A DNA stretch of 64,000 nt from Maritimibacter alkaliphilus (GTDB lineage Bacteria > Pseudomonadota > Alphaproteobacteria > Rhodobacterales > Rhodobacteraceae). This document shows positions 13,493 to 33,749 of this stretch, one piece after another. Where the stretch lies: contig NZ_JAHVIT010000006.1 in NCBI RefSeq assembly GCF_019801605.1, forward strand, positions 1 through 64,000. The letters are read 5' to 3'. Below the pieces are notes generated by a model, which searched no databases, was not told where the DNA came from, and was given only the letters and a program-made list of their open reading frames with translations. How positions within the stretch are numbered: the stretch's first letter is position 1; each line of letters opens with the position of its first letter. A program made the position numbers and the translations under genes.

Positions 13493-13810
13493 TCAGTCGC
13501 GCGCCATGTCATCCATGTCCAGTTGCAGCAGCACCGAGGCAAGGCACTTGCCATGGGCGTCGAGCGCGAGCGAGCGCGTGACACCCCCGGCAAGCGCGCC
13601 AAGGATCACGAAGTTCAGCGCGTGGAGCTGGGGCAGCGCAAAGCGCTCGACACCGCCGTCCTGCCCCAGGCCCAGCTGCGCGGCCACCACCTCGGGCGTC
13701 AGCGCCCGCTCCAGCAGCGGCCAGTCGTCGGGCCGATAGGCGATGACCGAGATGTTCGAGGTGTCGCCCTTGTCGCCGGTCCGGGCGTGGGCAAGGTCAT
13801 GCAGTCTCAT
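13493..13810 (-). CDS. AtuA-like ferredoxin-fold domain protein
   Basis: A 105-residue protein beginning MRLHDLAHARTGDKGDTSNIS, the hallmark of the small AtuA-associated domain. In other organisms this is often fused to or encoded next to AtuA. Its ATG lies inside the end of the atuA reading frame (14-bp overlap), so the two are translationally coupled and probably form one complex. It is the last gene of the long leftward operon. The biochemical activity of AtuA and this partner is not established. Confidence 0.85.
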   Translation of the reverse strand: MRLHDLAHARTGDKGDTSNISVIAYRPDDWPLLERALTPEVVAAQLGLGQDGGVERFALPQLHALNFVILGALAGGVTRSLALDAHGKCLASVLLQLDMDDMARD

Positions 13811-15176
13811 CCTGTCCCTCCATGATCTCGACCTGCTGGGCGACTTGCGCCGCAGGCAGGAAGGCGGTGGCGATGCCAAGAATCTCGCGATGCTGCCGGG
13901 TGACGCCGCCCCCGCCCGCCGGGCCGGTGAGGTAGAGCCCCTCGACCTCCTCTCCCACCTGCCGCGCGGTGGCCGCATCCCGGCAGCGCGCGGCATAGCG
14001 CAGGCGGACCTCGGCGGGCTCCGCCGCCGCCGCGACACGGGCCCCCGGCGCAATGGCATCGAGCCCGATCAGCTCGGCCCGGTCCTCGAGGATCGCCGCG
14101 CCGAGCGGGGCCAGCCGCGCGCGCAGCAGGTCGATCCCCAGCGAGCCCCGGGCCACGCAGTTGGCCCCGGCGTAGGAAATCTGCCCCTCGCCCAGCCAGC
14201 CATCGCGGTAACCGACCGAGACCTTCAGCTGCCCGGAGGCGGGATGCCCGGTCGCGCCGCACACCGCGACGCGATCAGGCCCGATCTCCTCCAGCTCCAC
14301 ACCGGAGAAATCGGCCACCACGTCCGGCTGCAGATAGCGGGCGGGGTCGTGGATCTCGTAGAGCAGCTGTTCGGTGCAGGTGGCGCGGGTGACCAGCCCG
14401 CCGGTGCCCGGCAGCTTGGTGATGACCGCGTTGCCGGCGCGGTCCACCTCTGCCAGCGGGAAGCCGATCCGGGCGAGGTCCGGCACGTCCTTGACGCCGG
14501 GATCGGCGAAGTAGCCGCCGGTGATCTGGGCCGAACATTCCAGCAGATGCCCCACCAGCGTTCCCCGTCCCAGCCGCACCCAGTCGTCCATCGCCCAGCC
14601 GAACCCGTGGATCAGTGGCCCGAGGAACAGCGCCGGGTCCGAGGCGCGTCCGCAGATCACCACGTCGGCGCCCTGCTCCAGCGCCGCGACGATCCCCGCC
14701 GCCCCGACGTAGGCATTGGCCGAGACGAGCCCCGCGCCAAGCGCGGCCGCCGGGGCGCCGGTCTCCTCCAGAACGCAGGGCCCGATCCGGTCGAGGACGT
14801 CGTCCCCGGTCACCGCGGCCACCTTCAGACCGGAGAGGCCCAGCTCCCGCGCCACGGCCCGGGTCGCGCGGGCGGCCGCCTGCGGATTGGCCGCACCCAT
14901 GTTGGTCACGATCCGCGTGCCGTTGCGGGCACAGGCGGGCAGGACGGCCCGCATCCGGCGCTCCAGCAGTGGGTCGTAGCCCGCCTCCGGGTCCGCCAGC
15001 CGCGCCTGCTGGGCCAGCGCGATGGTCCGCTCGGCAAGGCATTCGAAGACGAGGTAGTCGAGCGCCCCGCGCTCCGCGAGGTCCACCGCCGGGTCGATGC
15101 GATCGCCCTGGAACCCGGCGCCGGTGCCGATCCGCAGGATGTCCCCGCTGCGGCCGGTCCTGTCCTTGATGGTCAT
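13797..15176 (-). CDS. AtuA family protein (DUF1446)
   Basis: A 459-residue soluble protein of the acyclic terpene utilisation AtuA family (DUF1446). Key segments are ILRIGTGAGFQGDR at the N-terminus, NMGAANPQAAA (about 93-103), VICGRASDPALFLGP (about 175-190) and the Gly-rich LTGPAGGGGV near the end. AtuA proteins occur in citronellol/geraniol clusters and in many CoA-ester catabolic operons, but no reaction is assigned. Its ATG overlaps the stop of the fused TRAP permease by the ATGA arrangement. It therefore belongs to the transporter/CoA-transferase operon. Confidence 0.88.
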   Translation of the reverse strand: MTIKDRTGRSGDILRIGTGAGFQGDRIDPAVDLAERGALDYLVFECLAERTIALAQQARLADPEAGYDPLLERRMRAVLPACARNGTRIVTNMGAANPQAAARATRAVARELGLSGLKVAAVTGDDVLDRIGPCVLEETGAPAAALGAGLVSANAYVGAAGIVAALEQGADVVICGRASDPALFLGPLIHGFGWAMDDWVRLGRGTLVGHLLECSAQITGGYFADPGVKDVPDLARIGFPLAEVDRAGNAVITKLPGTGGLVTRATCTEQLLYEIHDPARYLQPDVVADFSGVELEEIGPDRVAVCGATGHPASGQLKVSVGYRDGWLGEGQISYAGANCVARGSLGIDLLRARLAPLGAAILEDRAELIGLDAIAPGARVAAAAEPAEVRLRYAARCRDAATARQVGEEVEGLYLTGPAGGGGVTRQHREILGIATAFLPAAQVAQQVEIMEGQDETA

Positions 15177-17032
15177 GCCAGTGCCTTCCTCTGGGCCCGG
15201 CCCAGCTGATGCCCGCCCACGAGAAGCGCAAGCGCCACGAAGGGCGTGACGGGATGCGGGTAGATCGCAAGCCCGATCGCCCCCGCGTAGAGTGCAAGGT
15301 CGATGCCGCGCCGCCCGGTGATCCGGATGCCCGCCAGCAGCGCGGGCACCGCCAGCACGAGGACCAGCCCCGCCGCCACCGCCTCGGTGATCGCGAGCGG
15401 CCCGCCCTGCAGCATCATGCCGGGGTAGACCAACAGCAGGAACGGCACCAGATAGGTCACTGCCCCCAGCCGCACCGCCTCGCCCGCGGCGGGCAGCCAG
15501 TTGGTGTTCGCGATGCCCGAGCCCACGAAGACCGCCACGCAGACCGGCGGCGTGATGACCGAGATCGTCGCGAAGTAGAAGACGAAGAGATGCGCCGCCA
15601 GCGGGTCGATCCCCACCGCCGTCATGGCCGGGGCCAGCACTGCCGCGACAAGGACATAGGCCGCCGTCGTGGGCAGGCCCATGCCCATGATCATGCAGAC
15701 GAAGGCCACGATGAGCGCCACCATCACGGTGCTGTCCCCCGCGACCGACACGATCAGCGAGGAGAGCGAGACGCCCACGCCGGTCAGGTTGATCATCGAG
15801 ACCAGCACCTGCGCCCCGGCCAGCAGCACCCCGATGATGACAAGGCCCCGGCCCGCGTCCTCGAGCCCGGCGATGACCTTGCGCGCCATCTGCCACGGGC
15901 TCAGCCGTCCGGCTTCGGTCACCACGAAGGCGGCCAGCAGGCCGAGGATGCCGTAGAAGGCCGCCGTGGCGATCGAGCGGCCCAGCCAGATCCCGATCCC
16001 CAGCCCGCCCAGTGCCGCCAGCGTCGGCAGCACCCGGCGCGGGGCCACGATCTGCTTCCACTCCGGCAGTTCCGCCTCGGGCACCAGCGCAAGGCCCCTG
16101 CGCAGGGCGACGAAATGCACCGTCATGAAGACGGAGAGGTAGAACAGCATCGCCGGCAGGATCGCAGCGACGATGATCGTGACATAGGAGGTGCCGAGGA
16201 TTTCGGCCATGACGAAGGCCGCGGCCCCCATGATCGGCGGCGCGATCTGACCACCGGTGGAGGCCACCGCCTCGACCGCGGCGGCGAAGGGCCGGGGGTA
16301 GCCGAGGCGGATCATCATCGGGATGGTGAAATTGCCCGTGGTCGCCACGTTGGCCACCGCCGAGCCCGAGATCATCCCGAAGAGCCCGCTGGCGATGGTG
16401 GCGATCTTGGCCGCGCCGCCGGGCTGGCGCCCGCCGAGCCGCATCGCCACGTCCATGAAGGCCTGCCCGCCGCCGGTGTGCAGCAGCAGCGCCCCGAAGA
16501 GCACGAAGGCCGCGATCACCGTCGCGGCGACGCCGGTCAGCATCCCCCAGATGCCGAGGTCCCCGAGGAAGATCGTCTCGGTCACGAAGGCGCTGTCGAA
16601 GCCGCGATGCCGCAGCGGCCCGGTCAGGTGGTTGCCGTAGAGCGCATAGGCCAGCCCGATCAGCACCAGCACCGGGAAGATCACGCCCACGGTGCGCCGC
16701 CCCAGTTCCAGCACCGCCAGCACGAGGCCCGCGGTCAGCGCCATGTCCAGCGTCGTGGCCCAGGGCAGTTCGGTCATGATGCGGTCGTAGTTCACCACCA
16801 CGTAGGTGCAGGCCGCCAGCGTGGCAGCGACCAGCGCAAGGTCGATCGCCAGCCCCAGAGGCCGCCAGCGGCGCCCCGCCCCCAGCGGGTAGACGGCAAA
16901 GCCGAGGCTGCAGACCAGGGCCAGGAACAGCGCGCGCTGGATCAGCCCCTCGAAGGGGCCGGTGGCGGCGGTATAGAGAACGAAGGCGCCGACGAGTATG
17001 GCAAGCCCCCGCTGAATGCGGTCGAGGATCAT
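15173..17032 (-). CDS. TAXI-type TRAP transporter, fused 4TM/12TM permease
   Basis: A 619-residue membrane protein in which an N-terminal DctQ-like segment (about the first 150 residues) is fused to a DctM large permease. The permease part shows the family's SGSAVANVATTGNFTIPMM and GGQIAPPIMGAAAFVMAE motifs (about 220-270) and GMGLPTTAAYVL near 460. Such fused permeases work with TAXI solute-binding proteins, and one is encoded directly upstream. It imports an organic-acid-type substrate using the sodium or proton gradient. It is translationally coupled to the AtuA gene downstream. Confidence 0.93.
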   Translation of the reverse strand: MILDRIQRGLAILVGAFVLYTAATGPFEGLIQRALFLALVCSLGFAVYPLGAGRRWRPLGLAIDLALVAATLAACTYVVVNYDRIMTELPWATTLDMALTAGLVLAVLELGRRTVGVIFPVLVLIGLAYALYGNHLTGPLRHRGFDSAFVTETIFLGDLGIWGMLTGVAATVIAAFVLFGALLLHTGGGQAFMDVAMRLGGRQPGGAAKIATIASGLFGMISGSAVANVATTGNFTIPMMIRLGYPRPFAAAVEAVASTGGQIAPPIMGAAAFVMAEILGTSYVTIIVAAILPAMLFYLSVFMTVHFVALRRGLALVPEAELPEWKQIVAPRRVLPTLAALGGLGIGIWLGRSIATAAFYGILGLLAAFVVTEAGRLSPWQMARKVIAGLEDAGRGLVIIGVLLAGAQVLVSMINLTGVGVSLSSLIVSVAGDSTVMVALIVAFVCMIMGMGLPTTAAYVLVAAVLAPAMTAVGIDPLAAHLFVFYFATISVITPPVCVAVFVGSGIANTNWLPAAGEAVRLGAVTYLVPFLLLVYPGMMLQGGPLAITEAVAAGLVLVLAVPALLAGIRITGRRGIDLALYAGAIGLAIYPHPVTPFVALALLVGGHQLGRAQRKALA

Positions 17033-17176: not shown

Positions 17177-17182
17177 GCGGCG

Positions 17183-18142
17183 TCACATCGCCGGTTTCAG
17201 ACGTTCGGGCACCTCGATGCCCTGCTCCGCGAACCAGCGCAGCGCGCCGGGATGCAGCGGGACGGTGGCATAGTCGAGGGTCATCTGGGCGAGGTCTGCG
17301 CCCTTCACCACCGAGAAGGCGTTGGCCTGCACCTCCTTGTCCTCCATCACCGCCTTCACGATCTGGTAGGCGGTGTCGTCGGACATGGCCGAGGTCGCGG
17401 CGATCCCCACGCCGAAGCTCCAGGTCTTGTAGGCGGGGATATCCTCGCCCACGCCGGCGGCGATATCGACGATGGAGATATCCGGCATCGCCTCGGCCAC
17501 GGTCCGGGCCTGCGCCTCGTCGAGGCCCAGCACCTTGATCCTGGTCGAGACGGCGATGTCCATGGTGGAACTGTCGAGCTGCTTGGGCGTGCCGGATTTC
17601 ACGTAGCCCGGCAGGCGGTTGTCCTTGATCGCACCGACGATGTCGGTGGTCGAGCCGCGCACCCAGTCCGGCGCAATTCCGAGCACGTCGAAGACCGCCT
17701 CGGTCGTGGTCTCGGTGGCCGAGCCCTTGATGCCCGGGTTCAGCCGCGTGCCGCCGAGCGCCGCAAGGCTGTCGATCCCCGCGTCCGCCCGCACGATGAC
17801 GTTCTGCGGCGAGGGCGCATAGACCCAGAGGAGTTGCAGGTCCTGCGGGCGGCCGTCGAACTCCTTGGTCCCCGCGACCGCGTGCTGCACCACGTTGGTG
17901 GTGATGATGCCGAGGTCGATCTGCCCGCGCTCCATCCGACGGATGTTGTCCATCGCCGCGCCGGTCTCGACGACCGTGGCGCTGAGCCCGCTGTCGCTGT
18001 CGTTGATCAGCTTGCCCACGGCAACGATGTAGCCGTAGTGGCTGGACGAGGCCGATGTGGAGCCGAACAGGATATCCTGCGCCCGAACAGCGGGCGCACA
18101 CAGAACCGCCGCGCCAAGCGCGGCCAAAATCGTACGTTTCAT
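17183..18142 (-). CDS. TAXI family TRAP transporter solute-binding protein
   Basis: A 319-residue periplasmic protein. A Sec signal peptide (MKRTILAALGAAVLCAPAVRA) is followed by the TAXI-family start ILFGSTSASSSHYGYIVAVGKLIN, then ETGAAMDNIRRMERGQIDLGI and the C-terminal LHPGALRWFAEQGI. TAXI receptors deliver substrate to fused TRAP permeases such as the next gene. A GAGGAGAG site precedes the ATG. The gene lies 116 bp after the CitE-like lyase gene. The ligand is presumably the acid processed by the CoA-transferase/dehydratase/lyase genes of the same operon. Confidence 0.92.
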   Translation of the reverse strand: MKRTILAALGAAVLCAPAVRAQDILFGSTSASSSHYGYIVAVGKLINDSDSGLSATVVETGAAMDNIRRMERGQIDLGIITTNVVQHAVAGTKEFDGRPQDLQLLWVYAPSPQNVIVRADAGIDSLAALGGTRLNPGIKGSATETTTEAVFDVLGIAPDWVRGSTTDIVGAIKDNRLPGYVKSGTPKQLDSSTMDIAVSTRIKVLGLDEAQARTVAEAMPDISIVDIAAGVGEDIPAYKTWSFGVGIAATSAMSDDTAYQIVKAVMEDKEVQANAFSVVKGADLAQMTLDYATVPLHPGALRWFAEQGIEVPERLKPAM

Positions 18143-18258: not shown

Positions 18259-19059
18259 TCAGGGCGCCGCGGTGTCAACGCCCAGAAGGATCTCCTCGGC
18301 CCGGTCGCGCAGCGGCCGGTCCACCATCTTGCCGTCGACCTGCACCGCCGCCCCGCCCGCGCCCTCCAGCGCGGCAAGGATGCGGTGGGCCCAGTCGACC
18401 TCGTCCAGCGTGGGGGCAAAACCCGCGTTCACCGGCGCGACCTGCGCCGGGTGGATGCAGAGCTTGGCCCCGAAGCCCATGGTGCGGGCCCGCGCCACGT
18501 CCGCCGCGATGACCTCCGGGTCCTTCAGCGCGGTGGTCACCCCGTCCACGGGCGGCGGCAGGTTCCCCAGCCGGGCCGCCATCACCAGTTCAAACCGCGC
18601 CGGGTCCAGCACGGCCCCGCCGCCGGGAATGCGCGCATCGGCGCCGAAGTCGAGGTTCCCGAAGGCCAGCCGCGCGACGCCCGGCACATGCACCGTCTGG
18701 CGCAGCCCGGCGAGGCCCTCGACCGTTTCGACCAGCGCCGTCAGCGCCCGGCCCGGCAGGCTGCGGGCGACCTCGGCCATGGCATGGGGCGTGGCCTTGG
18801 GCACCATCACCTCGGCCCCCAGACCGGAGAGCGCGGAGAGATCGGCGGCGTGCCACGGCGTGCCGGCCGCGTTGATCCGCACCAGCGCCTGCCCGCCCGC
18901 CGCCAGCCAGTCGCGCACGTGGCCACGGGCCGCGTCCTTGTCCTGCGGGCCGACGGCATCCTCCAGGTCGAGGATCACCGCCCCGGCCCCGGCGGCCGCG
19001 GCCTTGTCGAAGCGGTCGGGCCGGTGACCGGGCACGAAGAGATAGCTGCGCGGGATCAT
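18259..19059 (-). CDS. HpcH/HpaI aldolase/citrate lyase beta (CitE-like) acyl-CoA lyase
   Basis: A 266-residue TIM-barrel lyase of the CitE-like group: SYLFVPGHRPDRFDKA (N-terminus), VILDLEDAVGPQDK (about 28-41), MVPKAT, ALVETVEGLAGL with the metal-binding Glu, FGNLDFGAD and KLCIHPAQVAPVNAGF. The family includes citramalyl-CoA, malyl-CoA and beta-methylmalyl-CoA lyases, which split a 3-hydroxyacyl-CoA into acetyl- or propionyl-CoA and an oxoacid. Its ATG overlaps the stop of the acyl dehydratase gene. With the tandem CoA-transferases upstream, a citramalyl-CoA-type cleavage is the most economical proposal. Confidence 0.88.
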   Translation of the reverse strand: MIPRSYLFVPGHRPDRFDKAAAAGAGAVILDLEDAVGPQDKDAARGHVRDWLAAGGQALVRINAAGTPWHAADLSALSGLGAEVMVPKATPHAMAEVARSLPGRALTALVETVEGLAGLRQTVHVPGVARLAFGNLDFGADARIPGGGAVLDPARFELVMAARLGNLPPPVDGVTTALKDPEVIAADVARARTMGFGAKLCIHPAQVAPVNAGFAPTLDEVDWAHRILAALEGAGGAAVQVDGKMVDRPLRDRAEEILLGVDTAAP

Positions 19060-19919
19060 GCGAAGGTCGCCTCCGCCTTCATCGCCAGTTCCCCCGCCGG
19101 GCCCCGGGCCCAGACCGAAAGAGCGCCGGGCGCCTCGCCCGCCCCCGCCTCCAGCCGGAAGTGCGCATCGACGAAAAGCGGCGCCATCCCCCGGAAGCTG
19201 AAGCCGGTCATCTGCGCCCCGGGGCGCATCTGCGCGGCAAAGCCCTGCAACAGGGTGGCGATCAGCGGCCCGTGGACCACGAGGCCGGGATAGCCCTCCT
19301 CGCCGGTGGCATAGGGCTGGTCGTAGTGGATGCGGTGCCCGTTCGAGGTGAGCGCCGAATAGCGGAAGAGCAGGACCGGATCGGGCCGCACCTCCGCGCT
19401 GCGCTCGGCCCCCTCGGGGGCGGCGGCGGGCACCGGCCTGGGCGCATCGGCAGCCGGCGGCTCGCGGTAGACGATGTCCTGCTCCTCCTCGATGCACAGC
19501 CTGCCACCGGTGGAGATACGGTGCCGCACGGTGACGAAGACGAGCCGCCCGGCCCGGCCGGACTTCGCGGCGACATCGATGATCTCGCTCTGCTTCTCGG
19601 CCTGCGCGCCCACGGGAAGCGGGGCGAGATAGCGCAGCCGCCCGCCCGCCCACATCCGCTGGGGCAGCCCGGTGTCGGGCAGGAAGCCGCCCAGCTTCGG
19701 ATGGCCATCCGCGCCGATCTCGCCGCGCGCGACGAAGGGATTGAAGAAGAGCCAGTGCCAGCCCGCGGGCAGCGCGTCGCCCGCCCGCGGCAAGGTGTCG
19801 AGGCCCAGCGTCGCCGCGAGGGCGGCAACCCGGTCGGGCAGGATCGGTTCGGCCCGGGTCTCGATCCGGCCGATGGCCTCGGTGGGGTCGCTCAGGCGCG
19901 GGGCGGTGTCGGTGGTCAC
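19056..19919 (-). CDS. MaoC-like acyl-CoA hydratase (mesaconyl-C4-CoA/itaconyl-CoA hydratase type)
   Basis: A 287-residue double-hotdog protein. The N-terminal FAS1-like dehydratase half includes HWLFFNPFVARGEIGADGHP and PQRMWAGGRLRY. The C-terminal MaoC half carries LLFRYSALTSNGHRIHYDQPYA (about 190-211), containing the catalytic Asp/His-type hydratase motif, then YPGLVVHGPLIATLL. This arrangement is that of mesaconyl-C4-CoA hydratase and itaconyl-CoA hydratase, which produce citramalyl-CoA. Gene order CoA-transferases - hydratase - CitE-like lyase matches that chemistry. The precise CoA ester is inferred, not shown. Confidence 0.85.
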   Translation of the reverse strand: MTTDTAPRLSDPTEAIGRIETRAEPILPDRVAALAATLGLDTLPRAGDALPAGWHWLFFNPFVARGEIGADGHPKLGGFLPDTGLPQRMWAGGRLRYLAPLPVGAQAEKQSEIIDVAAKSGRAGRLVFVTVRHRISTGGRLCIEEEQDIVYREPPAADAPRPVPAAAPEGAERSAEVRPDPVLLFRYSALTSNGHRIHYDQPYATGEEGYPGLVVHGPLIATLLQGFAAQMRPGAQMTGFSFRGMAPLFVDAHFRLEAGAGEAPGALSVWARGPAGELAMKAEATFA

Positions 19920-23767: not shown

Positions 23768-23770
23768 GGA

Positions 23771-25110: not shown

Positions 25111-25111
25111 C

Positions 25112-25909: not shown

Positions 25910-26629
<720 letters not shown>

Positions 26630-26637
<8 letters not shown>

Positions 26638-27409
26638 CGTCGCTCCCCAGGTAGATGCGGACCACCTCCTCGTCGGCGCGCACCTCGGCGGGGCTGCCGA
26701 CAGCCACGAAGGCGCCGAAGTTCAGCACGTAGATCCGGTCGCAGATCGACATGACGAGGTCCATGTCATGCTCCACCACAACCATCACGAGGTCGGGCGA
26801 GGCCAGCCGTCGCAGGCTCCGCATCAGGTCGCGGGTCTCGGCGTTGTTGAGGCCCGCCGCCGGTTCGTCCAGCAGCAGCACGTCGGGCTTGCCGACGATG
26901 GCGCGGGCGATCTCCACCAGCCGCAGCATGCCGGGCGGCAGCTGCGCGGGCAGTTTCTCCGCCGCCTGCGCCAATCCCAGTTCGCTCAGCGCGGCCATGG
27001 CGGCGGCACGCATCCCGGCCATTTCGCGGCGTCCGCGCCCGGTGGGCAGGAAGGCATGGAGCCAGCCGGCATGGTGATTGCGCGCCACGCCGATCATCAC
27101 GTTCTCCAGCACCGTCAGGTCGGGGCTGAGCGCCACATGCTGGAAGCTGCGCACGATCCCCCGGCTGGCCCGCGCAGCGGGTGGCAGCCCGTCGAGCGGC
27201 TGGCCGTCATAGCGGATCGAGCCCTTCTGGGGCGTATAGGCCCCGGTGAGACAGTTGAAGAGGCTCGTCTTGCCCGCCCCGTTGGGGCCGATCAGCCCGG
27301 TGATCTCTCCGGCGCGGAATTGCACGTCGAGCCCCTTGAGCACTTCGATCCCGCCGAAGGAGAGGGCGATCCCCTGCCCCGTCAGCGCCTTGGTCGTCCT
27401 GTCCATCAT
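26630..27409 (-). CDS. livG: ABC transporter ATP-binding protein, LivG type
   Basis: A 259-residue ATPase with Walker A GLIGPNGAGKTSLFNCL (about residues 40-56), Q-loop SFQHVALSPDLTV and Walker B VLLLDEPAAGLNNAE. The signature motif is unusual: where LivG proteins normally have LSYGQQR, it reads LPPGMLRLVEIARAI. Length and C-terminus are normal, so the transporter is probably still functional. The ATG (MMDRTTK) overlaps the livM stop (ATGA). Confidence 0.92.
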
Positions 27410-28383
27410 GCACCGCCTTTCCGGCGCGCCAGCGCCCTCAGGCGTGGCAGGTAGTGGCCGAAGAGGATCACCCCCAGCAGCGCCAGCCCGTAGAGCACCG
27501 GGATCCACGCCCCCGAGGCCGAGAGCATCTGCGGCACCAGCGTCAGGAAGGCGCCCCCGATCAGCGCGCGCGGCAGGGTGAGCCCGTAGAAGCTGACCAC
27601 CGAGCCCACGAGCAGGAAGATCGCGGACCAGAGCGTGAAGCCGCTGGGGCTGACGGTGGAGCCGGCAAAGCCCAGCATCGCCCCGCAGAGCGCGGCAATC
27701 CCGCCGCTGATCCCCATGACCGCGATCCGCGCCCAGACCCGCCGGGTGCCGAAGGCATCGGCGGCGGCCGGATGGGCCTTGGCCAGCAGCAGGACCAGCC
27801 CCTGCCGCGACCGGCGCAGGCGCGACAGCCCGTAGACCACCAGCGCCAGCACGATCAGCGCGCCGTAGTAGCGCTGCAGCCCCATCTTCACGCCCGGGAT
27901 CACGGGCTGCGAGACATAGAGCCCCTCGTAGCCGCCGGTGAGCCCGTCCATGTTGTTGATCATCTCGGGCACCGCGAGGGCGAGCGCCATGGTTGAGACC
28001 GCGAGGTAGATGCCGGAAAGCCGCCGGGACGGCCAGGCAAAGGCCACGCCGGCCACCACGCCAAGCGCAAGCGCGAGGGGCAGGCTGGCGATCAGCGACA
28101 GCCCGTAGCGGGTGTCGAGCACGGCCACGGAATAGGCCCCCACCGCGGCAAAGAAACTGTGCCCGATGGAGACCTCGCCGCCGTAGCGCACGAGGACCGA
28201 GACCGAGAGCACGCCGATCGCATTGGCGAAACAGACCCCCAGCGTGAAGATCCACGACCCGCCCAGCAGGAAGGGCAGCACGAGCAGCAGCAGCAGCACC
28301 GCCCAGGTCAGCGCCTCGGGCCGCAGGGCCAGACGCCCCTGCCCCACCGCGGTTCCGTTGAGACTTGCGGATTGATCAGACAC
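27406..28383 (-). CDS. livM: ABC transporter permease, LivM type
   Basis: A 325-residue permease with about nine to ten membrane segments and the family motif YGGEVSIGHSFFAAVGAYSVAVL (about residues 67-89), GIYLAVSTMALALAVPEM and a loop containing RVWARIAVMGISGGIAALCGAM. It pairs with LivH to form the translocation channel. Overlaps exist on both sides (8 bp with livH, ATGA with livG), showing tight operon structure. Confidence 0.92.
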   Translation of the reverse strand: MSDQSASLNGTAVGQGRLALRPEALTWAVLLLLLVLPFLLGGSWIFTLGVCFANAIGVLSVSVLVRYGGEVSIGHSFFAAVGAYSVAVLDTRYGLSLIASLPLALALGVVAGVAFAWPSRRLSGIYLAVSTMALALAVPEMINNMDGLTGGYEGLYVSQPVIPGVKMGLQRYYGALIVLALVVYGLSRLRRSRQGLVLLLAKAHPAAADAFGTRRVWARIAVMGISGGIAALCGAMLGFAGSTVSPSGFTLWSAIFLLVGSVVSFYGLTLPRALIGGAFLTLVPQMLSASGAWIPVLYGLALLGVILFGHYLPRLRALARRKGGA

Positions 28384-29266
28384 GGGTCCCTCCCACGCGT
28401 TCGAGGATGCCGTTCGGGAAGATGTTCAGCGCCAGCAGGATCACCCCAAGCAGGAAGGTCGAGGAGAACTCGGGCGAGACGTAGAAGGTGAAGAGGTTCA
28501 TCAGCACACCGATCAGGATGCCGCCCAGCAGGGCGCCGGGCAGGCTGGCAAAACCACCGATCACCGCCGCCGCGAAGGCCTGCAGCATGAAGGCCGCCAC
28601 CGTCGTCACGGACAGGAAGGTGGTCGGCACGATCAGCAGCGCGCCCACGACCCCCAGCACCGCCGCCACCATCCACGAGAAGAGGTGGACGGAGCGCAGG
28701 TTCAGCCCGCAGACCTCGGCCGCGAAGGGGTTCTCCGAGATCGCGCGGAAGGCCACGCCCAGCTTGGTATGGTCGATGACGAAGAAGAGCGCCGCGATGG
28801 TCACGATGGCCACCGCCAGGACGGTCAGGTCATAGCCGGTGACGAAGAGCCCCAGCACCGACATCCCGAAGCGCGGGATCGGCAGGTCGAGGCTGACAAT
28901 ATCGGCGCCGAAGATCAGCAGCGTCGCGCCCTGCGCGATCAGCCCGATCCCCAGCGTGGCGATGGTGGCGGTCAGGTCGCTCTCGAAGACGAGGGGCGAG
29001 ATCAGCGCGTAGGTCATGAAGGCGATCGCGATCACCGCGATCACCGCCAGCAGCACCGCCGCGCCCCAGCTCAGCTCCATCAGCATCCCGCTGGAAAAGC
29101 CGTAGATCAGGAAGGCGGCAAAGCCCGCCACGTTGCCGTGACTGAAGTTCACCACGCGGGAGGACTTGAAGATCATCACCAGCCCGAGCGCGCCAAGCGC
29201 ATAGAGGCACCCGGTGATCATCCCCGACCAGACCAGCGGAAAGAGGTCGCGGAAGAGATCGCTCAT
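28376..29266 (-). CDS. livH: ABC transporter permease, LivH type
   Basis: A 296-residue membrane protein with about eight hydrophobic segments. The conserved block GCLYALGALGLVMIFKSSRVVNFSHG lies near residues 19-44, followed by GVAFRAISENPFAAEVCGLN and AFAAAVIGGFASLPGALLGG, all characteristic of LivH. It begins with an ATGA overlap with the dehydrogenase gene upstream. Confidence 0.93.
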   Translation of the reverse strand: MSDLFRDLFPLVWSGMITGCLYALGALGLVMIFKSSRVVNFSHGNVAGFAAFLIYGFSSGMLMELSWGAAVLLAVIAVIAIAFMTYALISPLVFESDLTATIATLGIGLIAQGATLLIFGADIVSLDLPIPRFGMSVLGLFVTGYDLTVLAVAIVTIAALFFVIDHTKLGVAFRAISENPFAAEVCGLNLRSVHLFSWMVAAVLGVVGALLIVPTTFLSVTTVAAFMLQAFAAAVIGGFASLPGALLGGILIGVLMNLFTFYVSPEFSSTFLLGVILLALNIFPNGILERVGGTRV

Positions 29267-30192
29267 GCCGCCTCTCCCGCCGTCTTGCGGGGCGCGGCCC
29301 CCTCCCCTGTCGCCATGTCCCCGCGTTCGACCAGCTCGATCACGCCCGGGAAGTAGCGCCCGGACAGGTCGGTGCCGGTGGCGGTCTCGTAGTAGCTGCG
29401 CGCGGTGCCCGCGGCGGGCAGCGCCACGCCGAGGTCGCCCGCCAGTTCGAACACGTAGGAGATGTCCTTGAGCACGTATTCCGGCGAGAAGGCCTTGTCC
29501 GGGAAGACCCGGGGCAGCATCGCCTTCATGCCGTGGTTGCGCAGCACGAAGCTGTCGCCCGAGCCCTTGGAGACCGCCTCCAGCAGGACCTCCGGTGCGA
29601 CGCCTGCCTTCTCGCCCAGCACCATCATCTCGGCCAGGGCCACGGTATTGGCGAAGACCAGCATGTTGTTGACCAGCTTCAGCACCTGCCCTGCCCCCAC
29701 GTCCCCGCCGTGGGTCACGTCGGTGGCGATGTAGTCGAGCATGGGACCGATCCGGGCAAAGACCGCGTCCGGGGCCCCCACCATGATCGCCAGCGCCCCC
29801 TTCTGCGCCGCCTCGCGGGTGCGCGCCACGGGGGCGTCGGCAAAGCCGATGCCATTGGGGGCCAGATCGGCTGCCACGCTGCGCGCGGTGGCGACCGGCG
29901 TGGTGGAGAGATCCACCACCAGGTCACAGCGCCCGCCCGCCGCGGCGATGGCGGCGCTGACCTTCTCCACCTGCGGGCCGCCGGGCAGCGAGAGGAAGAT
30001 CACCTCCGCCTCCGCCGCCAGCGCCTCGACCGAGGGCACGCGGGTGGCGCCCGCCTCCTCGACCGCCCTCAGCGCGTCTTCCGACAGGTCGAAGGCCAGC
30101 ACGCGGCCCGGATGTTTCCGTGCCATGTTGCGGCACATGGGGCCGCCCATGACGCCGAGGCCGATGAATCCGATGGTGTTGGTGTTGCTCAT
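29263..30192 (-). CDS. 3-hydroxyisobutyrate dehydrogenase family NAD(P)-dependent oxidoreductase
   Basis: A 309-residue beta-hydroxyacid dehydrogenase. It has the Rossmann motif IGFIGLGVMGGPMCRN (about residues 7-22), the substrate-binding DAPVARTREAAQKGALAIMVG, and the catalytic Lys in GAGQVLKLVNNML (about 172-184). It would oxidise a 3-hydroxyacid (or reduce a semialdehyde) in the cytoplasm. It lies 4 bp after an SDR gene and is coupled to livH, so the oxidation is part of the pathway fed by the ABC transporter. Confidence 0.9.
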   Translation of the reverse strand: MSNTNTIGFIGLGVMGGPMCRNMARKHPGRVLAFDLSEDALRAVEEAGATRVPSVEALAAEAEVIFLSLPGGPQVEKVSAAIAAAGGRCDLVVDLSTTPVATARSVAADLAPNGIGFADAPVARTREAAQKGALAIMVGAPDAVFARIGPMLDYIATDVTHGGDVGAGQVLKLVNNMLVFANTVALAEMMVLGEKAGVAPEVLLEAVSKGSGDSFVLRNHGMKAMLPRVFPDKAFSPEYVLKDISYVFELAGDLGVALPAAGTARSYYETATGTDLSGRYFPGVIELVERGDMATGEGAAPRKTAGEAA

Positions 30193-30196: not shown

Positions 30197-30946
30197 TCAA
30201 TCCATCAACATGCCGCCGTTCACGTCGAGAACGGTGCCGGTGATCCAGTTGGAAGCAGGCGAACAGAGGAAGAGGATCGCCTGCGCGATATCTTCGGGCT
30301 GGCCGAAGCGGCCGAGGGGCACATTGCCGTTGGCCGAGGGCGCCGCCCGTTGGGTGACGGTTTCCCACATCGGGGTCTCCACCGGGCCGGGCGCGATGAT
30401 CGAGGCATAGACCCCCTTGGGCGCCCCCGCCTTGGCGACCCATTTCATAAGCCCGTGCACCGCGCTTTTCGCCGCGACGTAAGACGGCCCCGAGGCGACA
30501 CCGCCGATCTTGGCCGCGATGGAGCCGAGGGCGACCATCTTGCCGAAGCCCTGCCCCTCCATCACCGGGAAGATCGCCCGGACCGGGTTCACAACCCCCA
30601 TGAGGTTCACGTCGAGGATCGACCGCCATTCGTCGTCCGTGCTCTCGGCCAGCGGCCGGTGCGAGATCGTGCCGGCGCAGAGCACCAGCGCGTCGATGCG
30701 GCCATGGGCCTCCAGCACGGCGGCGACCAGCGCATCGGTCTCCTCGCGCGAGGTGACGTCGTAGCGGCGGTACTGCACCCGGTCGGTGCCGAAGTCCGCC
30801 GTCTCGGCGATGTCGGTCGCGATCACCGTCGCCCCCGCCTCGGCCAGGGCCAGCACCGTGGCCCGTCCGATCCCGCCTGCCGCGCCCGTCACGAGCGCGA
30901 TCCGTCCCTCCATGCGCGCCGGCGCACTGACTGGTATCAGGGTCAT
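30197..30946 (-). CDS. short-chain dehydrogenase/reductase
   Basis: A 249-residue classical SDR: VTGAAGGIGRA nucleotide motif (about residues 15-25), LVLCAGTISHRP (NNAG-like), catalytic Ser in ALGSIAAK and YVAAK as the YxxxK motif, then PGPVETPMWE and ITGTVLDVNGGMLMD. I use the ATG preceded by GGGAGACAGG. An ATG eight codons upstream (to 30970) has no ribosome site. It is the second gene of the leftward ABC-transporter operon and presumably acts on an alcohol or keto group of the imported compound. Confidence 0.9.
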   Translation of the reverse strand: MTLIPVSAPARMEGRIALVTGAAGGIGRATVLALAEAGATVIATDIAETADFGTDRVQYRRYDVTSREETDALVAAVLEAHGRIDALVLCAGTISHRPLAESTDDEWRSILDVNLMGVVNPVRAIFPVMEGQGFGKMVALGSIAAKIGGVASGPSYVAAKSAVHGLMKWVAKAGAPKGVYASIIAPGPVETPMWETVTQRAAPSANGNVPLGRFGQPEDIAQAILFLCSPASNWITGTVLDVNGGMLMD

Positions 30947-31015
30947 CCCTGTCTCCCGAAATTTCGTCATGTAAGTTCACTGGCGTGCGCCCCGCCCGAG
31001 GCGCACGCCCTGCGG

Positions 31016-32224
31016 TCACTCGGTCTTCGCGTCGAAGACGACCGCGGGATAGGGCCGGAATTCCTGCACCAGCTCGAAGCCGCCATCCTTGGACTGGATG
31101 ATGCCTTCCTGCCGGGTCCCCCGGTGATCGCCCGCCTCGAAGGTCACGCCGCGGGCGCCACCCACGTCCGCGTCCTTCAGGGTTTCCAGCGCCGCCACGA
31201 GGTTCGCGCGGGTCAGTTCCTTGCCCGAGGCCAGCAGCGCCTCGAACCCCTTGTGGAAGATCGCCGCGTTGGACCAGCCGTTCAGGCCGAAGACGCCCAC
31301 CGGGTCCTCCGGGTAGTAGGTCTTGATCGACTCGCGGTAGGCGCTGATCCCCGCATCGTCGCTGCTCACCGGCATCAGCCAGGAGGAGAAGTGCACGCCG
31401 TCCAGCAGGTCGCCCGCCAGCTTCAGGGTCGAGGGATCGGCGGTGAAGAAGGGCGCGAACCATTCCACGTCCAGCCCCTGCAGGTCCGCGGCCTTCAGTG
31501 CCGCGGCAAGGTTGGCGTTGGAGCCGAAGAGGATCACCGCCTCGGCGCCGGAATTCGCGACGCGGCGGATATGGGCGCTGAAGCTGGTGGTCTTCACGTC
31601 GAAGGGCACCGACTCGGCGGGCTCCATCTCCATCTCGGCCATGTAGGCGTCAAAGCCGCGCTTGGCGGATTTTCCCAACTCGTCGTTCTCCCACAGCAGG
31701 GCCACCTTCTTCAGCCCCAGCGTGTTCACCGCGTAGTCGAGGTTGGACGCCGCCGACCAGCCGTAGTCCGGCAGCAGCGGAAAGACCGTCGGCTCCACGA
31801 AGAAGGCCGAGGCCCCGCCGATCGGGCCCACCACGGGCAGGCCGACCTCGCGGGCATAGGGCAGGACGGCGACATTGGTGGCCGTGCCGATGGGCGCGGC
31901 GAGGGCGAAGATGCCGTCATCCTCGACCATCTGCCGCGTCACCGCGACCGAGCGCGCCGGGTCGTAGCCGTCATCCTTGGTGACATAGTTGATCGTCCAG
32001 CCGTCGATGCCGCCATTCTCGTTGAGATTGCGGTAATAGGCCTCCGCCGCGTGGGTCAGGATGGCATAGAACGGCACCGGCCCCGTCACGGGCGTGAAGG
32101 CGCCGATCGTCACCACCTTGTTCTCCTCGTCGATCCCCGCATCTGCCGCCGCCAGCGGCCCCGCAAGGCATAGCCCCGCTGCGAGCGCGGTCGTGGCGAC
32201 CGCTCCCCTGAGTACCGAAAACAT
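31016..32224 (-). CDS. ABC transporter substrate-binding protein, branched-chain amino acid (HAAT) type
   Basis: A 402-residue periplasmic type I binding protein. The signal peptide runs to about residue 28 (TALAAGLCLAGPLAAAD), followed by VTIGAFTPVTGPVPFYAILTHAAEAYYRNLNENGGIDG, the usual LivJ-like opening. The remainder carries YDPARSVAVTRQMVEDDGIFAL and the hinge region IRRVANSGAEAVILF. A GGGAGGAG site precedes the chosen ATG. It heads the transporter operon and is served by a good promoter next to an AATGCAT operator. It supplies substrate to LivHMGF. Confidence 0.93.
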   Translation of the reverse strand: MFSVLRGAVATTALAAGLCLAGPLAAADAGIDEENKVVTIGAFTPVTGPVPFYAILTHAAEAYYRNLNENGGIDGWTINYVTKDDGYDPARSVAVTRQMVEDDGIFALAAPIGTATNVAVLPYAREVGLPVVGPIGGASAFFVEPTVFPLLPDYGWSAASNLDYAVNTLGLKKVALLWENDELGKSAKRGFDAYMAEMEMEPAESVPFDVKTTSFSAHIRRVANSGAEAVILFGSNANLAAALKAADLQGLDVEWFAPFFTADPSTLKLAGDLLDGVHFSSWLMPVSSDDAGISAYRESIKTYYPEDPVGVFGLNGWSNAAIFHKGFEALLASGKELTRANLVAALETLKDADVGGARGVTFEAGDHRGTRQEGIIQSKDGGFELVQEFRPYPAVVFDAKTE

Positions 32225-32262
32225 GTGATCTCCTCCCATACATGCTTCGTTATTTTCAGTCG

Positions 32263-32291
32263 AAGCTACGCAGAGGGTCCTAGGCTGTCAA
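32263..32291 (-). promoter_or_regulatory. sigma70-like promoter of the ABC-transporter operon
   Basis: On the minus strand TTGACA (32291-32286) is followed by 17 bp and TAGCTT (32268-32263), about 40 bp before the binding-protein ATG. The AATGCAT motif lies 5 bp upstream of the -35. Confidence 0.6.
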
Positions 32292-32294
32292 TAT

Positions 32295-32303
32295 ATAATG
32301 CAT
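32295..32303. promoter_or_regulatory. AATGCAT operator half-matching site, divergent region
   Basis: ATAATGCAT matches 7 of 8 core bases of the GntR motif and directly abuts the TTGACA -35 of the leftward operon. A weaker partial copy (TATAATGC, 32349-32356) lies 55 bp further right. Confidence 0.5.
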
Positions 32304-32424
32304 CCACTAAAAGCACCTGGAATAGGCGTGGCGGCGTCAAAACTCTCATATAATGCTGTTTCAACAGGAGAAACGCGGTGTAGCAGGCGGTCTCGCCATG
32401 ATAGAAACCTCGGTGGCGGCCATG

Positions 32425-32436
32425 ATAATGCATTTT
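32425..32436. promoter_or_regulatory. AATGCATT operator site near the divergent CoA-transferase
   Basis: ATAATGCATTTT is identical over 12 bases to operator site 2 in front of the acyl dehydratase operon, and a similar TCTGA follows both. It lies 84 bp upstream of the CoA-transferase ATG, in the 295-bp divergent region. Confidence 0.6.
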
Positions 32437-32519
32437 CTGACTTGCCACACTTCAGGCCTTCTGACACTTCTGAACCCGCCCTGCCCCGGCGTGGCAGGCA
32501 TCCGATACGGGAGGACAAG

Positions 32520-33749
32520 ATGACCAATGGCGTTCTGGCAGGCCGCAAGGTGGTGGAACTGGGCAGCATGATCGCAGCCCCCTTCGCCACGCATATCCTG
32601 CAACAACTGGGGGCGGAGGTGGTCAAGATCGAACCGCCCGCCGGCGAGACCACCCGCAAGCTGGTCCGCGGGGGCCCCAGCGGCAGCTACCTCGCCTTCA
32701 ACCGCGGCAAGCGCAGCCTCTGCCTCGACCTCACTTCCGACGCCGGACGCGAGGCCTTCCGCAAGCTGGTCGCGCAGGCCGACATCGTCGTGCACAACCT
32801 CTCGCCCTCCGCGGCACGCAAGCTGGGGGCGACCTACGAGGACCTCTCTGTGCTCAACCCCGACCTGGTGTTCTGCCACATCAAGGGCTACGGCGCCGGC
32901 CCGCTGGAGGAGCAGGTCGCCTCGAACCCGATCGCGGAGGCCGCCACGGGGGTCATGTTCTCCAACCGGGTGGACGGGCGTCCGTCCCGGCTCGGCCCGT
33001 CCTACCATGACCAGTTCGCGGGCTGCTACGCGGTGATCGCCGTGCTCACCGCGCTGCTGTCGGACGACCCGGCAAAGCGCAACATCGAACTCGGCCTCTA
33101 CGAGACGGGGCTGCACATCGCCGCGCGCGATCTGCTGGGGGTCCAGCTGAAGTCCCAGATCCTCGGCCGGCCCGAGACCGAGCCCTCGGCGGAATTCTCG
33201 ATCCCCGGCTACGGCGCCTACGAAACCCGGGACGGGCGCTGGATCTACCTCGTGATGCTGACCGACGAACACTGGCGCCGGTTCTGCCGCGCCACGGGCA
33301 TCCCCGCCGATCCGGCTCTGGCCGGGCTGCGGGACCGCCGCCGTGCGCGTCCCCAGGTCGAGGCCATGGTGCGTGAGGCGGTCGGCGCGCAGGACTGGGA
33401 CGCGCTGGTGGCCGCGCTCTCGGCAGAGGGTGTGGGCTTCACCGAGATCCTGTCGACGGACCGTGTGTTGGAAACGCCGCAGGCGCAGGCCCCCGGCAAG
33501 GCCACGGACTTCGGCTTCAGCGCCTATGACTTCACCGCGCCCGATTTCCCGCTGCCCGCCCTGCTCCACGCCGCCGGGTTGGCCGCGGCCCCGCCCCTGC
33601 TGGGCGAGGACAGCGCCGCGATCCTCGCCGAACTCGGCTATGACGACGCGCAGCTTCAGCAGATGTTCGCCAGCGGCACGGCGGTATCCGCGGACCCGGA
33701 GGCCGCCCTCTGGGCCCTGCCCCGGACCTCCGCATCGGCTGCGGAATAG
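32520..33749 (+). CDS. CaiB/BaiF class III CoA-transferase
   Basis: A 409-residue class III CoA-transferase: LAGRKVVELGSMIAAPFATHILQQLGAEVVKIEPPAGE at the N-terminus, NRGKRSLCLDLTSDAGRE, and the catalytic Asp164 in SYHDQFAGCYAV. It is the third such enzyme of the island and the only rightward gene in it, divergent from the ABC binding-protein gene. GGGAGGACAAG precedes the ATG; the open frame extends further upstream but runs through the operator sites. It likely activates the imported acid or an intermediate to its CoA ester. Followed by a strong hairpin. Confidence 0.92.
   Translation: MTNGVLAGRKVVELGSMIAAPFATHILQQLGAEVVKIEPPAGETTRKLVRGGPSGSYLAFNRGKRSLCLDLTSDAGREAFRKLVAQADIVVHNLSPSAARKLGATYEDLSVLNPDLVFCHIKGYGAGPLEEQVASNPIAEAATGVMFSNRVDGRPSRLGPSYHDQFAGCYAVIAVLTALLSDDPAKRNIELGLYETGLHIAARDLLGVQLKSQILGRPETEPSAEFSIPGYGAYETRDGRWIYLVMLTDEHWRRFCRATGIPADPALAGLRDRRRARPQVEAMVREAVGAQDWDALVAALSAEGVGFTEILSTDRVLETPQAQAPGKATDFGFSAYDFTAPDFPLPALLHAAGLAAAPPLLGEDSAAILAELGYDDAQLQQMFASGTAVSADPEAALWALPRTSASAAE

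What the first reader, a model, noticed from the sequence alone, without database searches (positions are those of the whole stretch)
13493..33749. 20-kb island for an unassigned acid catabolised through CoA esters, with both ABC and TAXI-TRAP uptake
Seen: three class III CoA-transferases, two hotdog acyl-CoA hydratases, a CitE-like lyase, AtuA plus AtuA-like, a HIBADH-like dehydrogenase, an SDR, an MBL-fold lactonase-like hydrolase, an isochorismatase-fold protein, a FadR-type GntR, and two independent importers, in two tightly overlapping operons. Known: CoA-transferase - MaoC hydratase - CitE-like lyase is the logic of itaconate/mesaconate breakdown via citramalyl-CoA (Ict-Ich-Ccl). Inference: the extra dehydrogenases, hydrolases and AtuA pair would convert a larger, perhaps lactone- or ester-containing branched substrate to that point. 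I know no described pathway with this complete gene set.
Basis: partly seen in the sequence, partly recalled or inferred. Interest (0 to 1): 0.78.

Follow-up and report, generated by a model that had tools for sequence, protein, structure and literature searches.

The report
Mobile island for branched dicarboxylic acids
A block of about twenty genes beside plasmid replication genes, whose core recurs in soil, plant-associated and marine bacteria, probably opens a lactone and breaks a small branched acid down to pyruvate and acetyl-CoA; its growth substrate is unknown and no description of it was found.

Summary
In detail: 20 genes at 13493-33749 in tight operons. It is a real functional unit. 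The 15-gene order (ABC importer, SDR, HIBADH-like, lactonase, GntR, isochorismatase fold, hydratase, two CoA-transferases, Ich, Ccl) recurs unbroken in 20 of 80 named loci, with patchy, horizontal distribution. All five near-matches to one palindrome (TAATGCATTA) in the 64-kb window lie in island intergenic regions, so one GntR regulon probably joins the operons. Best reading: a lactone-opening front end feeding itaconyl/mesaconyl-C4-CoA -> citramalyl-CoA -> pyruvate + acetyl-CoA. Supports: one hydratase matches solved itaconyl-CoA hydratase PaIch (E 4e-68); the lactonase is an MBL or an SMP-30 enzyme, never both (0 of 80). Two name-based readings change: the isochorismatase-fold protein lacks its nucleophilic cysteine in 79 of 79, so 'cysteine hydrolase' is doubtful; AtuA's only full-length PDB fold match at E<=0.001 is a citramalate lyase, so 'terpene utilisation' is doubtful. 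The TRAP-AtuA part is an optional add-on (3-4 of 80 loci). Growth substrate and all activities remain inferred. New variant of the known Ict-Ich-Ccl logic.

The parts
32520..33749 (+). CoAT-C, class III CoA-transferase, divergent
   Evidence: PF02515; start trimmed; catalytic-position Asp164 in 57 of 57 aligned, window included
32240..32519 (.). divergent promoter region with operator-like palindrome at 32426 (and a weaker one, 2 mismatches, at 32296)
   Evidence: 26 of 28 CoAT-C/SBP regions, window included, hold a site with at most 1 mismatch, 0.3 expected from base shuffles
31016..32239 (-). ABC importer periplasmic binding protein (Peripla_BP_6)
30197..30970 (-). SDR, NAD-type (Asp53 in 52 of 52)
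29263..30192 (-). beta-hydroxyacid (HIBADH-like) dehydrogenase, NAD-type; PVARTR motif; best solved relative 2-hydroxymethylglutarate dehydrogenase (3cky)
28376..29266 (-). ABC permease (livH type)
27406..28383 (-). ABC permease (livM type)
26630..27409 (-). ABC ATPase (livG type)
25906..26637 (-). ABC ATPase (livF type)
25112..25909 (-). MBL-fold lactonase-like hydrolase; HxHxDH and other metal positions in 37 of 37
25046..25111 (.). operator-like palindrome at 25100 ahead of gntR
24410..25045 (-). GntR/FCD (FadR-subfamily) regulator
23771..24349 (-). isochorismatase-fold protein without the nucleophilic Cys (Val141)
23545..23770 (.). promoter region of second operon with three operator-like palindromes (23629, 23671, 23756)
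22315..23544 (-). MaoC409, double-hotdog hydratase/dehydratase, the most conserved of the ten enzymes compared
21125..22285 (-). CoAT-A, class III CoA-transferase subunit without the catalytic Asp (like chain A of benzylsuccinate CoA-transferase)
19935..21128 (-). CoAT-B, class III CoA-transferase subunit with the catalytic Asp (like chain B)
19056..19919 (-). Ich: itaconyl/mesaconyl-C4-CoA hydratase-like; only copy found in the genome at E<=1e-10
18259..19059 (-). Ccl: CitE-like (citramalyl-CoA lyase-like)
17183..18142 (-). TAXI-family TRAP binding protein (optional add-on)
15173..17032 (-). fused TRAP permease (optional add-on)
13797..15176 (-). AtuA (PF07287); fold match to citramalate lyase 9evf
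13493..13810 (-). AtuA_ferredoxin partner (PF23544)

Best explanation
The island is a horizontally moving catabolic unit for a branched C5-C6 dicarboxylic acid that is met as, or passes through, a lactone. One GntR repressor (inferred) controls a divergent CoA-transferase gene and two operons. Working order, mostly inferred: import; NAD-dependent SDR and lactonase (MBL here, SMP-30 elsewhere) give an open hydroxy-acid; the HIBADH-like enzyme interconverts a hydroxymethyl and a formyl group on a dicarboxylate; a two-subunit CoA-transferase (CoAT-A/B, built like benzylsuccinate CoA-transferase) loads CoA on a substituted succinate; MaoC409 removes or adds water; CoAT-C moves or reloads CoA onto the far carboxyl; Ich makes citramalyl-CoA; Ccl splits it to acetyl-CoA and pyruvate. 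A concrete version: paraconate -> itamalate (2-hydroxymethylsuccinate) -> itamalyl-C1-CoA -> itaconyl-C1-CoA -> itaconyl-C4-CoA -> citramalyl-CoA. In this and a few other Rhodobacterales the TAXI-TRAP importer plus AtuA/AtuA-ferredoxin were added, probably as an ATP-dependent citramalate lyase reaching the same products.
For: Island order conserved across families and classes (a reshuffled version in Cupriavidus). MaoC409-CoAT-A-CoAT-B adjacent on one strand in 79 of 80 loci. Shared palindrome in the promoter region of the second operon, the divergent region and before gntR, and nowhere else in the window at up to one mismatch (5 of 5 sites). Ich: E 4.4e-68 to solved itaconyl-CoA hydratase with NGHRIHYD invariant in 81 of 81. 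Ccl: best solved match 8khl/8wco ('Probable acyl-CoA lyase beta chain'), Glu111 and Asp137 in 61 of 61. CoAT-A's best solved match is chain A of benzylsuccinate CoA-transferase (E 3e-26) and it lacks the Asp in 90 of 90; CoAT-B keeps it in 90 of 90 and matches chain B at E 5e-46, second best. HIBADH-like: best solved match 2-hydroxymethylglutarate dehydrogenase, E 6e-43 against 3e-35 for the next. Lactonase: MBL 29, SMP-30 33, both 0, of 80 loci. AtuA: sole full-length PDB fold match at E<=0.001 is a citramalate lyase with ADP and pyruvate, E 2.7e-24, TM 0.71.
Against: No activity, metabolite or expression datum exists here. No CoA-transferase reaches a curated NCBIfam cut-off, and Ccl scores 129.7 bits against 375 for RipC_Ccl. 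The HIBADH-like protein has PVARTR where 3cky has PVSGG. MaoC409 has Tyr where hydratase-2 enzymes (recalled) have the catalytic His (24 of 24 close sequences, window included), and its fold matches have TM only 0.47-0.59 over the query for the MaoC, mesaconyl-CoA and itaconyl-CoA hydratases listed first. The isochorismatase-fold protein has no place in the concrete scheme. CoAT-A's two best solved matches differ by only 0.6 bits, and CoAT-B's best match is another CaiB/BaiF protein. The AtuA match is by fold only: a sequence search of the PDB with AtuA found nothing at E 0.01. MBL/SMP-30 exclusivity follows clades, so it is not many independent events; 18 of 80 loci show neither in the stretch held. 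SDR (44 of 80) and Ccl (52 of 80) are not seen in every locus.
Confidence: 0.62

Rival explanations
1. A plain itaconate/mesaconate/methylsuccinate island: Ict-Ich-Ccl with detoxifying extras (a lactonase for 2-hydroxyparaconate, as proposed for PA0880), no new upstream pathway.
For: Ich and Ccl similarity; PMC12290011 (introduction and part 1 of 2 of the discussion read) reports the proposed 2-hydroxyparaconate lactonase in the P. aeruginosa cluster. On the 56-kb Salipiger abyssi plasmid an MmgE/PrpD gene and an acyl-CoA dehydrogenase gene lie within about 10 kb on either side of the island.
Against: The methylsuccinate genes of that cluster (acyl-CoA dehydrogenase, MmgE/PrpD) are not among the 20 island genes; it leaves MaoC409, CoAT-A/B, the HIBADH-like and the isochorismatase-fold genes, seen in 80, 79, 79, 63 and 69 of 80 loci against 52 for Ccl, without a role. 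The SDR (44) is less constant than Ccl.
Confidence: 0.17
2. Degradation of a larger natural product (lignan-, iridoid- or terpenoid-like lactone) in which Ich/Ccl only finish a C5 remnant and the Cys-less isochorismatase-fold enzyme opens an enol ether.
For: The benzylsuccinate-transferase-like pair suggests an aryl- or alkyl-succinate; Novosphingobium, Bradyrhizobium and Burkholderiales hosts; loss of Cys with Asp11 and Lys108 kept, as vinyl-ether-hydrolysing isochorismatases work without it (recalled); a Rieske oxygenase gene lies near the island in L108.
Against: The recurrent extra genes that were scanned are a lactonase, TTT, NMT1, ABC and MFS transport genes, an aldehyde dehydrogenase and a CoA ligase pair, no oxygenase (most other recurrent clusters, many of them apparently antisense frames, were not scanned); several exchanged importers are of carboxylate types (TTT, TRAP, SDF symporter).
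Confidence: 0.15
3. A vitamin B6 or other N-heterocycle lower pathway: 2-(hydroxymethyl)-4-oxobutanoate lactol -> paraconate (SDR) -> itamalate (lactonase).
For: SDR plus MBL lactonase mirrors pyridoxal dehydrogenase/4-pyridoxolactonase (recalled; 4-pyridoxolactonase model hit at 28 bits).
Against: Score far under that model's cut-off of 325; no ring-opening gene was noticed among the genes scanned near the islands, though I made no search for one.
Confidence: 0.06

Closest known systems
Ict-Ich-Ccl itaconate/methylsuccinate cluster of Pseudomonas and Cupriavidus (PMC12290011)
   Same: Hydratase and lyase homologous; a CoA-transferase, hydratase, lyase succession (that its Ict is class III is recalled); pyruvate plus acetyl-CoA as expected products; a lactonase has been proposed in the P. 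aeruginosa cluster
   Different: Island has three CoA-transferases, a second double-hotdog hydratase, SDR, HIBADH-like, isochorismatase fold and GntR, and lacks the methylsuccinate dehydrogenase and isomerase
Benzylsuccinate CoA-transferase BbsEF (PDB 9fn0)
   Same: Two adjacent class III subunits, Asp in one only
   Different: No BbsG/BbsH/BbsCD/BbsAB partners noted in the island; similarity moderate
Lower nicotinate fermentation pathway of Eubacterium barkeri (recalled)
   Same: HIBADH-like enzyme closest in the PDB to a 2-hydroxymethylglutarate dehydrogenase; methylene-dicarboxylate, hydration and carbon-carbon cleavage logic
   Different: That route uses free acids, a B12 mutase and Fe-S dehydratase (recalled); this one would use CoA esters
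Blc/AttM gamma-butyrolactone pathway of Agrobacterium (recalled)
   Same: MBL lactonase followed by hydroxyacid oxidation
   Different: The enzymes that follow in the island belong to other families (recalled for BlcA/BlcB)
Citramalate lyase 9evf (PDB title only seen)
   Same: Full-length fold of AtuA
   Different: 17% identity; no sequence-level hit

Membership tests
Ict-Ich-Ccl itaconate pathway | Itaconyl-CoA hydratase homolog with conserved motif | tested here: met
   E 4.4e-68 to 8khg; NGHRIHYD 81 of 81
Ict-Ich-Ccl itaconate pathway | (S)-citramalyl-CoA lyase | tested here: inconclusive
   Best solved match 8khl (E 5e-46); under the RipC_Ccl cut-off, 129.7 of 375 bits
Ict-Ich-Ccl itaconate pathway | Succinyl-CoA:itaconate CoA-transferase | tested here: inconclusive
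   Class III domain met for three genes; no curated model cut-off reached
Ict-Ich-Ccl itaconate pathway | Growth on itaconate | not testable with these tools
   needs culture
BbsEF-type heteromeric CoA-transferase | Two adjacent subunits, catalytic Asp in one only | tested here: met
   Adjacent in 79 of 80; Asp in 0 of 90 for A, 90 of 90 for B; in the printed alignments chain A of 9fn0 lacks it and chain B has it
BbsEF-type heteromeric CoA-transferase | Activity on a 2-substituted succinate | not testable with these tools
   needs assay
Cysteine hydrolase (RutB, biuret hydrolase, nicotinamidase) | Nucleophilic Cys | tested here: not met
   Val141 aligned to it; Val in 79 of 79
AHL lactonase (MBL) | HxHxDH and further metal ligands | tested here: met
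   37 of 37
AHL lactonase (MBL) | Curated AHL-lactonase family score | tested here: not met
   best 67.6 of 360 bits
AtuA acyclic terpene pathway | AtuA domain | tested here: met
   PF07287, E 7.9e-156
AtuA acyclic terpene pathway | Geranyl-CoA carboxylase and other atu partners beside it (partners recalled) | tested here: not met
   none among the 20 island genes or the neighbours scanned
Citramalate lyase of the 9evf kind | Full-length fold | tested here: met
   E 2.7e-24, TM 0.71 both ways, the only full-length hit of the two at E<=0.001
Citramalate lyase of the 9evf kind | Sequence homology | tested here: not met
   no PDB hit at E 0.01 with the single sequence; no profile search was made
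2-hydroxymethylglutarate dehydrogenase | Substrate-binding PVSGG motif | tested here: not met
   PVARTR; Arg124 and Arg126 in 71 of 71

The most novel reading that the evidence does not exclude
An undescribed, widespread pathway in which a lactone (paraconate or a homologue) is opened to a hydroxymethyl-dicarboxylate, dehydrated as a CoA ester and converted through itaconyl- and citramalyl-CoA: a CoA-dependent C5 counterpart of the lower nicotinate fermentation pathway, with a Cys-less isochorismatase-fold enzyme of new activity, and with AtuA/AtuA-ferredoxin as an ATP-dependent citramalate lyase, which would also give DUF1446 proteins a function.
Probability: 0.3. Interest if true: 0.78.

Novelty: new variant of a known kind. 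Interest (0 to 1): 0.6.

Why it matters
The unit sits on plasmids of plant-associated Agrobacterium, of marine and saline-soil Rhodobacterales and, reshuffled, of Cupriavidus, and 80 loci at 77-95% identity to its central hydratase were kept out of 337 relatives found in one genome collection, so its substrate is probably common in nature although the papers searched do not name it. It would link lactones to itaconate-type metabolism. It also makes two open questions directly testable: what the AtuA (DUF1446) family does, and where citramalate goes in the enterobacterial cluster that carries a DUF1446 gene (PMC4682846, passages read, calls the fate unclear).

Tried and rejected
Tried without result: literature searches for the gene set, for paraconate/itamalate metabolism (31 papers, 25 listed, mostly synthetic chemistry and lichen or fungal metabolites) and for formylsuccinate or pyridoxine links; in the listings none describes this cluster, and I opened none of the papers. 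A second structural aligner was not available. A wrong frame was scanned first for GntR and AtuA and corrected. Promoters and terminators were not scanned (one search failed).

Selection limits: the 80 named loci are the best 80 of 337 hits, chosen by similarity to MaoC409; 59 of 80 are at least 21,000 bases long. Gene presence was counted at 35% identity over at least half the query, so diverged copies and genes beyond 10 kb are missed. The aligned sets include the window and four duplicate loci (one search shows 87 distinct MaoC409 genes among 91 loci).
Full report
WHAT IS THERE. The region 13493-33749 holds 20 genes. Read from the right, a divergent class III CoA-transferase (CoAT-C, + strand) faces, on the - strand, an ABC binding protein, SDR, HIBADH-like dehydrogenase, four liv-type ABC genes, an MBL-fold hydrolase, a GntR/FCD regulator, an isochorismatase-fold protein, a 409-aa MaoC protein (MaoC409), CoAT-A, CoAT-B, a 287-aa hydratase (Ich), a CitE-like lyase (Ccl), a TAXI binding protein, a fused TRAP permease, AtuA and AtuA-ferredoxin. 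Most gaps are overlaps or under 70 bases; 226 bases separate the isochorismatase-fold gene from MaoC409. Beyond CoAT-C come a Fic gene and repC, repB and parA-type genes, so the contig (172,077 bases) looks like a repABC plasmid.

IT IS A REAL UNIT. A tblastn search of plasmids with MaoC409 found 38 records, eight of them at 78-92% identity: two Agrobacterium larrymoorei, A. pusense, A. tumefaciens, Salipiger abyssi, Qingshengfaniella and two Cupriavidus. I opened seven of the eight. Five (one A. larrymoorei Ti plasmid, A. pusense, A. tumefaciens, S. abyssi, Qingshengfaniella) show the island's 15 genes and CoAT-C in the same order; the annotated Cupriavidus record has a variant with an extra MaoC gene before the SDR, SMP-30 for MBL, TTT receptors, DUF2889 and a pyruvate carboxylase, and the other Cupriavidus record is unannotated but shows much the same hits. 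A scan of genome contigs found 337 relatives, of which the best 80 were kept, all at 77-95% identity, mainly from alpha- and betaproteobacteria. In these 80 the 15-gene order from binding protein to Ccl is exact in 20; with 7 plasmid and 4 unnamed-genome loci it is 25 of 91, in either orientation, and 21 of the 25 keep the divergent CoAT-C. Four of the 91 duplicate others. MaoC409-CoAT-A-CoAT-B are adjacent in 79 of 80. The unit is patchy: among 99 other genomes of relatives only the same-genus G008 and G014 had a copy over 80%, and among 385 genomes of the class, the window's own included, only G146 (84%) and G112 (63%) beside it had one over 60%. That is the mark of horizontal transfer.

ONE REGULON. 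Palindromes were compared in the promoter regions of the window and its relatives. The word TAATGCATTA with at most one mismatch occurs five times in the 64-kb window: 23629, 23671, 23756 (ahead of MaoC409), 25100 (ahead of gntR) and 32426 (between CoAT-C and the ABC genes), all in island intergenic DNA; at two mismatches five more appear, two of them outside the island and two inside genes. Counting the window, 54 of 90 MaoC409 promoter regions and 26 of 28 CoAT-C/ABC regions hold such a site, against 0.5 and 0.3 expected from base-shuffled copies. Without the window it is 53 of 89 and 25 of 27, and these regions, 29.7 kb, hold 115 of the 218 sites in 1.79 Mb of loci. The loci share ancestry, so they are not independent, and 36 of 89 have no such site ahead of MaoC409. 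That the island's own GntR binds it is inferred.

CORE AND OPTIONS. Among the 80 named loci: CoAT-A 79, CoAT-B 79, GntR 70, Ich 69, isochorismatase fold 69, HIBADH 63, Ccl 52, CoAT-C 49, SDR 44, all four liv genes 34, TTT receptor 14, aldehyde dehydrogenase 9, TAXI 4, TRAP 4, AtuA 3; 21 of these loci are shorter than the full flanks. The lactonase is MBL in 29 and SMP-30/gluconolactonase in 33, never both, and 18 have neither in the stretch held. In the 59 full-flank loci it is 25, 25, 0 both, 9 neither. This follows clades, so Fisher's p there (2e-9) overstates independence; but two unrelated lactonases in the same setting argue for a lactone step. In the same way a succinyl-CoA-ligase-like pair is found in 8 of 59, and 7 of those 8 lack CoAT-C (41 of the other 51 have it), which suggests that CoAT-C activates a free acid. 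Importers are exchanged: ABC, TAXI-TRAP, TTT, MFS, NMT1-type. Among genes scanned in single loci are PrpF, a Rieske oxygenase and an aldo-keto reductase (L108), a dicarboxylate symporter (L112) and an acyl-CoA dehydrogenase (L106).

ENZYME BY ENZYME. Ich matches solved itaconyl-CoA hydratase PaIch (which I read as P. aeruginosa) over 269 residues (E 4.4e-68), keeps NGHRIHYD in 81 of 81 and is the only such gene found in the genome at E 1e-10. Ccl's best solved match is 8khl (E 5e-46); Glu111 and Asp137 are in 61 of 61; the RipC_Ccl cut-off is not reached. CoAT-A lacks the catalytic Asp in 90 of 90 aligned sequences, CoAT-B has it in 90 of 90 and CoAT-C in 57 of 57 (that this Asp is the catalytic one of class III enzymes is recalled). 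CoAT-A's best PDB sequence match is chain A of benzylsuccinate CoA-transferase, by 0.6 bits over 4ed9; CoAT-B's second best, after 4ed9, is chain B. In the printed alignments these two chains show the same division. I therefore read A and B as one heteromeric enzyme for a substituted succinate. BbsEF uses succinyl-CoA as donor (PMC10818641, passages read). MaoC409 was modelled (34 sequences, mean pLDDT 86.8); its nearest solved folds are double-hotdog dehydratases, among them a MaoC-like dehydratase (5i7n), a Chloroflexus MaoC protein (4e3e), PaIch and mesaconyl-CoA hydratase MeaC, with TM 0.47-0.59 over the query. It is the most conserved of the ten enzymes compared (mean pairwise identity 0.80, others 0.51-0.69); this is partly a selection effect, since loci were ranked by it. 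The HIBADH-like enzyme and the SDR carry the Asp of NAD-type enzymes in 71 of 71 and 52 of 52 (meaning of the Asp recalled). The isochorismatase-fold protein aligns Val141 with the RutB cysteine; it is Val in 79 of 79 while Lys108 is in 79 of 79 and Asp11 in 78 of 78 with one gap. Database names such as 'cysteine hydrolase' are thus doubtful. The family is described as cysteine hydrolases acting on vinyl ethers, amides and lactams (PMC4519933, passages read), and EntB and PhzD are isochorismatases for which vinyl ethers are named as substrates (PMC12210187, passages read); that these two dispense with the Cys is recalled.

AtuA. In 18 AtuA loci from 15 of 149 genomes of the order (two loci are the window's own genome), AtuA-ferredoxin was beside AtuA in 17 and TRAP upstream in 3, the island's own among them (1.5 kb either side was held). 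The model (21 sequences, pLDDT 88.7) has one full-length match in the PDB at E<=0.001, 9evf_A, 'Citramalate lyase - ADP - pyruvate complex' (E 2.7e-24, TM 0.71, 17% identity; next hit E 8e-4 and partial). I have seen only that title. A 2015 paper places a DUF1446 gene (which I recall as the former name of AtuA) in an enterobacterial mesaconase cluster and reports that the fate of citramalate is unclear (PMC4682846, passages read). Both point to C5 branched dicarboxylates, the same chemistry as Ich-Ccl.

MECHANISM. Shown: gene content, order, conservation, motif states, fold matches, shared palindrome. Inferred: everything catalytic. The scheme that gives most enzymes a job is: lactone opened by MBL/SMP-30; SDR and HIBADH-like enzyme adjust the alcohol/aldehyde level of a hydroxymethyl-dicarboxylate, as 2-hydroxymethylglutarate dehydrogenase, its best solved relative, does one carbon up (reaction recalled); CoAT-A/B and MaoC409 dehydrate it as a CoA ester; CoAT-C shifts or reloads CoA, as intramolecular mesaconyl-CoA transferases do (PMC9196870 and PMC9813914, search listing with the start of the abstract only); Ich and Ccl finish. 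Two hydratases, two activation systems and one lyase are what such a C1-to-C4 route needs. The isochorismatase-fold enzyme is not placed. I give about 0.62 to the general reading and 0.3 to the specific one.

NOVELTY. Searches of open PMC papers for the gene set returned itaconate papers or nothing. Ict-Ich-Ccl is known; this larger, apparently co-regulated, mobile set is not in what I could search. Subscription papers were not covered.

Noticed in passing
window 35051-38537: repC, repB and parA-type genes (repABC) directly beside the island, with a Fic-family gene (33825-34931) between.
   Followed up: partly
window 44136-50125: A second, separate set: IclR regulator, TctC, TctA, a class III CoA-transferase and a CitE-like lyase; likely another acid catabolised by CoA transfer and carbon-carbon cleavage.
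   Followed up: no
L151 (contig C6 of the window's genome, 67839-69488): Second AtuA plus AtuA-ferredoxin pair on the same replicon, 49% identical to the island's AtuA, without the TRAP gene within the 1.5 kb held on either side.
   Followed up: partly
L153 (Pseudosulfitobacter plasmid) 13052-17465: TAXI, fused TRAP, AtuA and a small protein in the same order as in the island, beside a distant MaoC409 relative and an AMP-binding ligase: the cassette travels on its own.
   Followed up: no
L055 19049-19630: DUF2889 gene next to the CitE-like lyase in the Cupriavidus version of the island.
   Followed up: no
window 22315-23544: In MaoC409 several basic residues (Arg253, His255, His257, His289, Arg290) are fixed or nearly so in 24 close sequences but mostly replaced in 12 relatives of 31-39% identity; candidate extra-carboxylate contacts.
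   Followed up: no
window 10173-13423: Glutathionylspermidine synthase-like and gamma-glutamyltranspeptidase genes follow the island.
   Followed up: no
L053 (Salipiger abyssi plasmid) 1-311 and 34894-36147: MmgE/PrpD and acyl-CoA dehydrogenase genes on the same small plasmid as the island, families that the known methylsuccinate cluster also uses.
   Followed up: no
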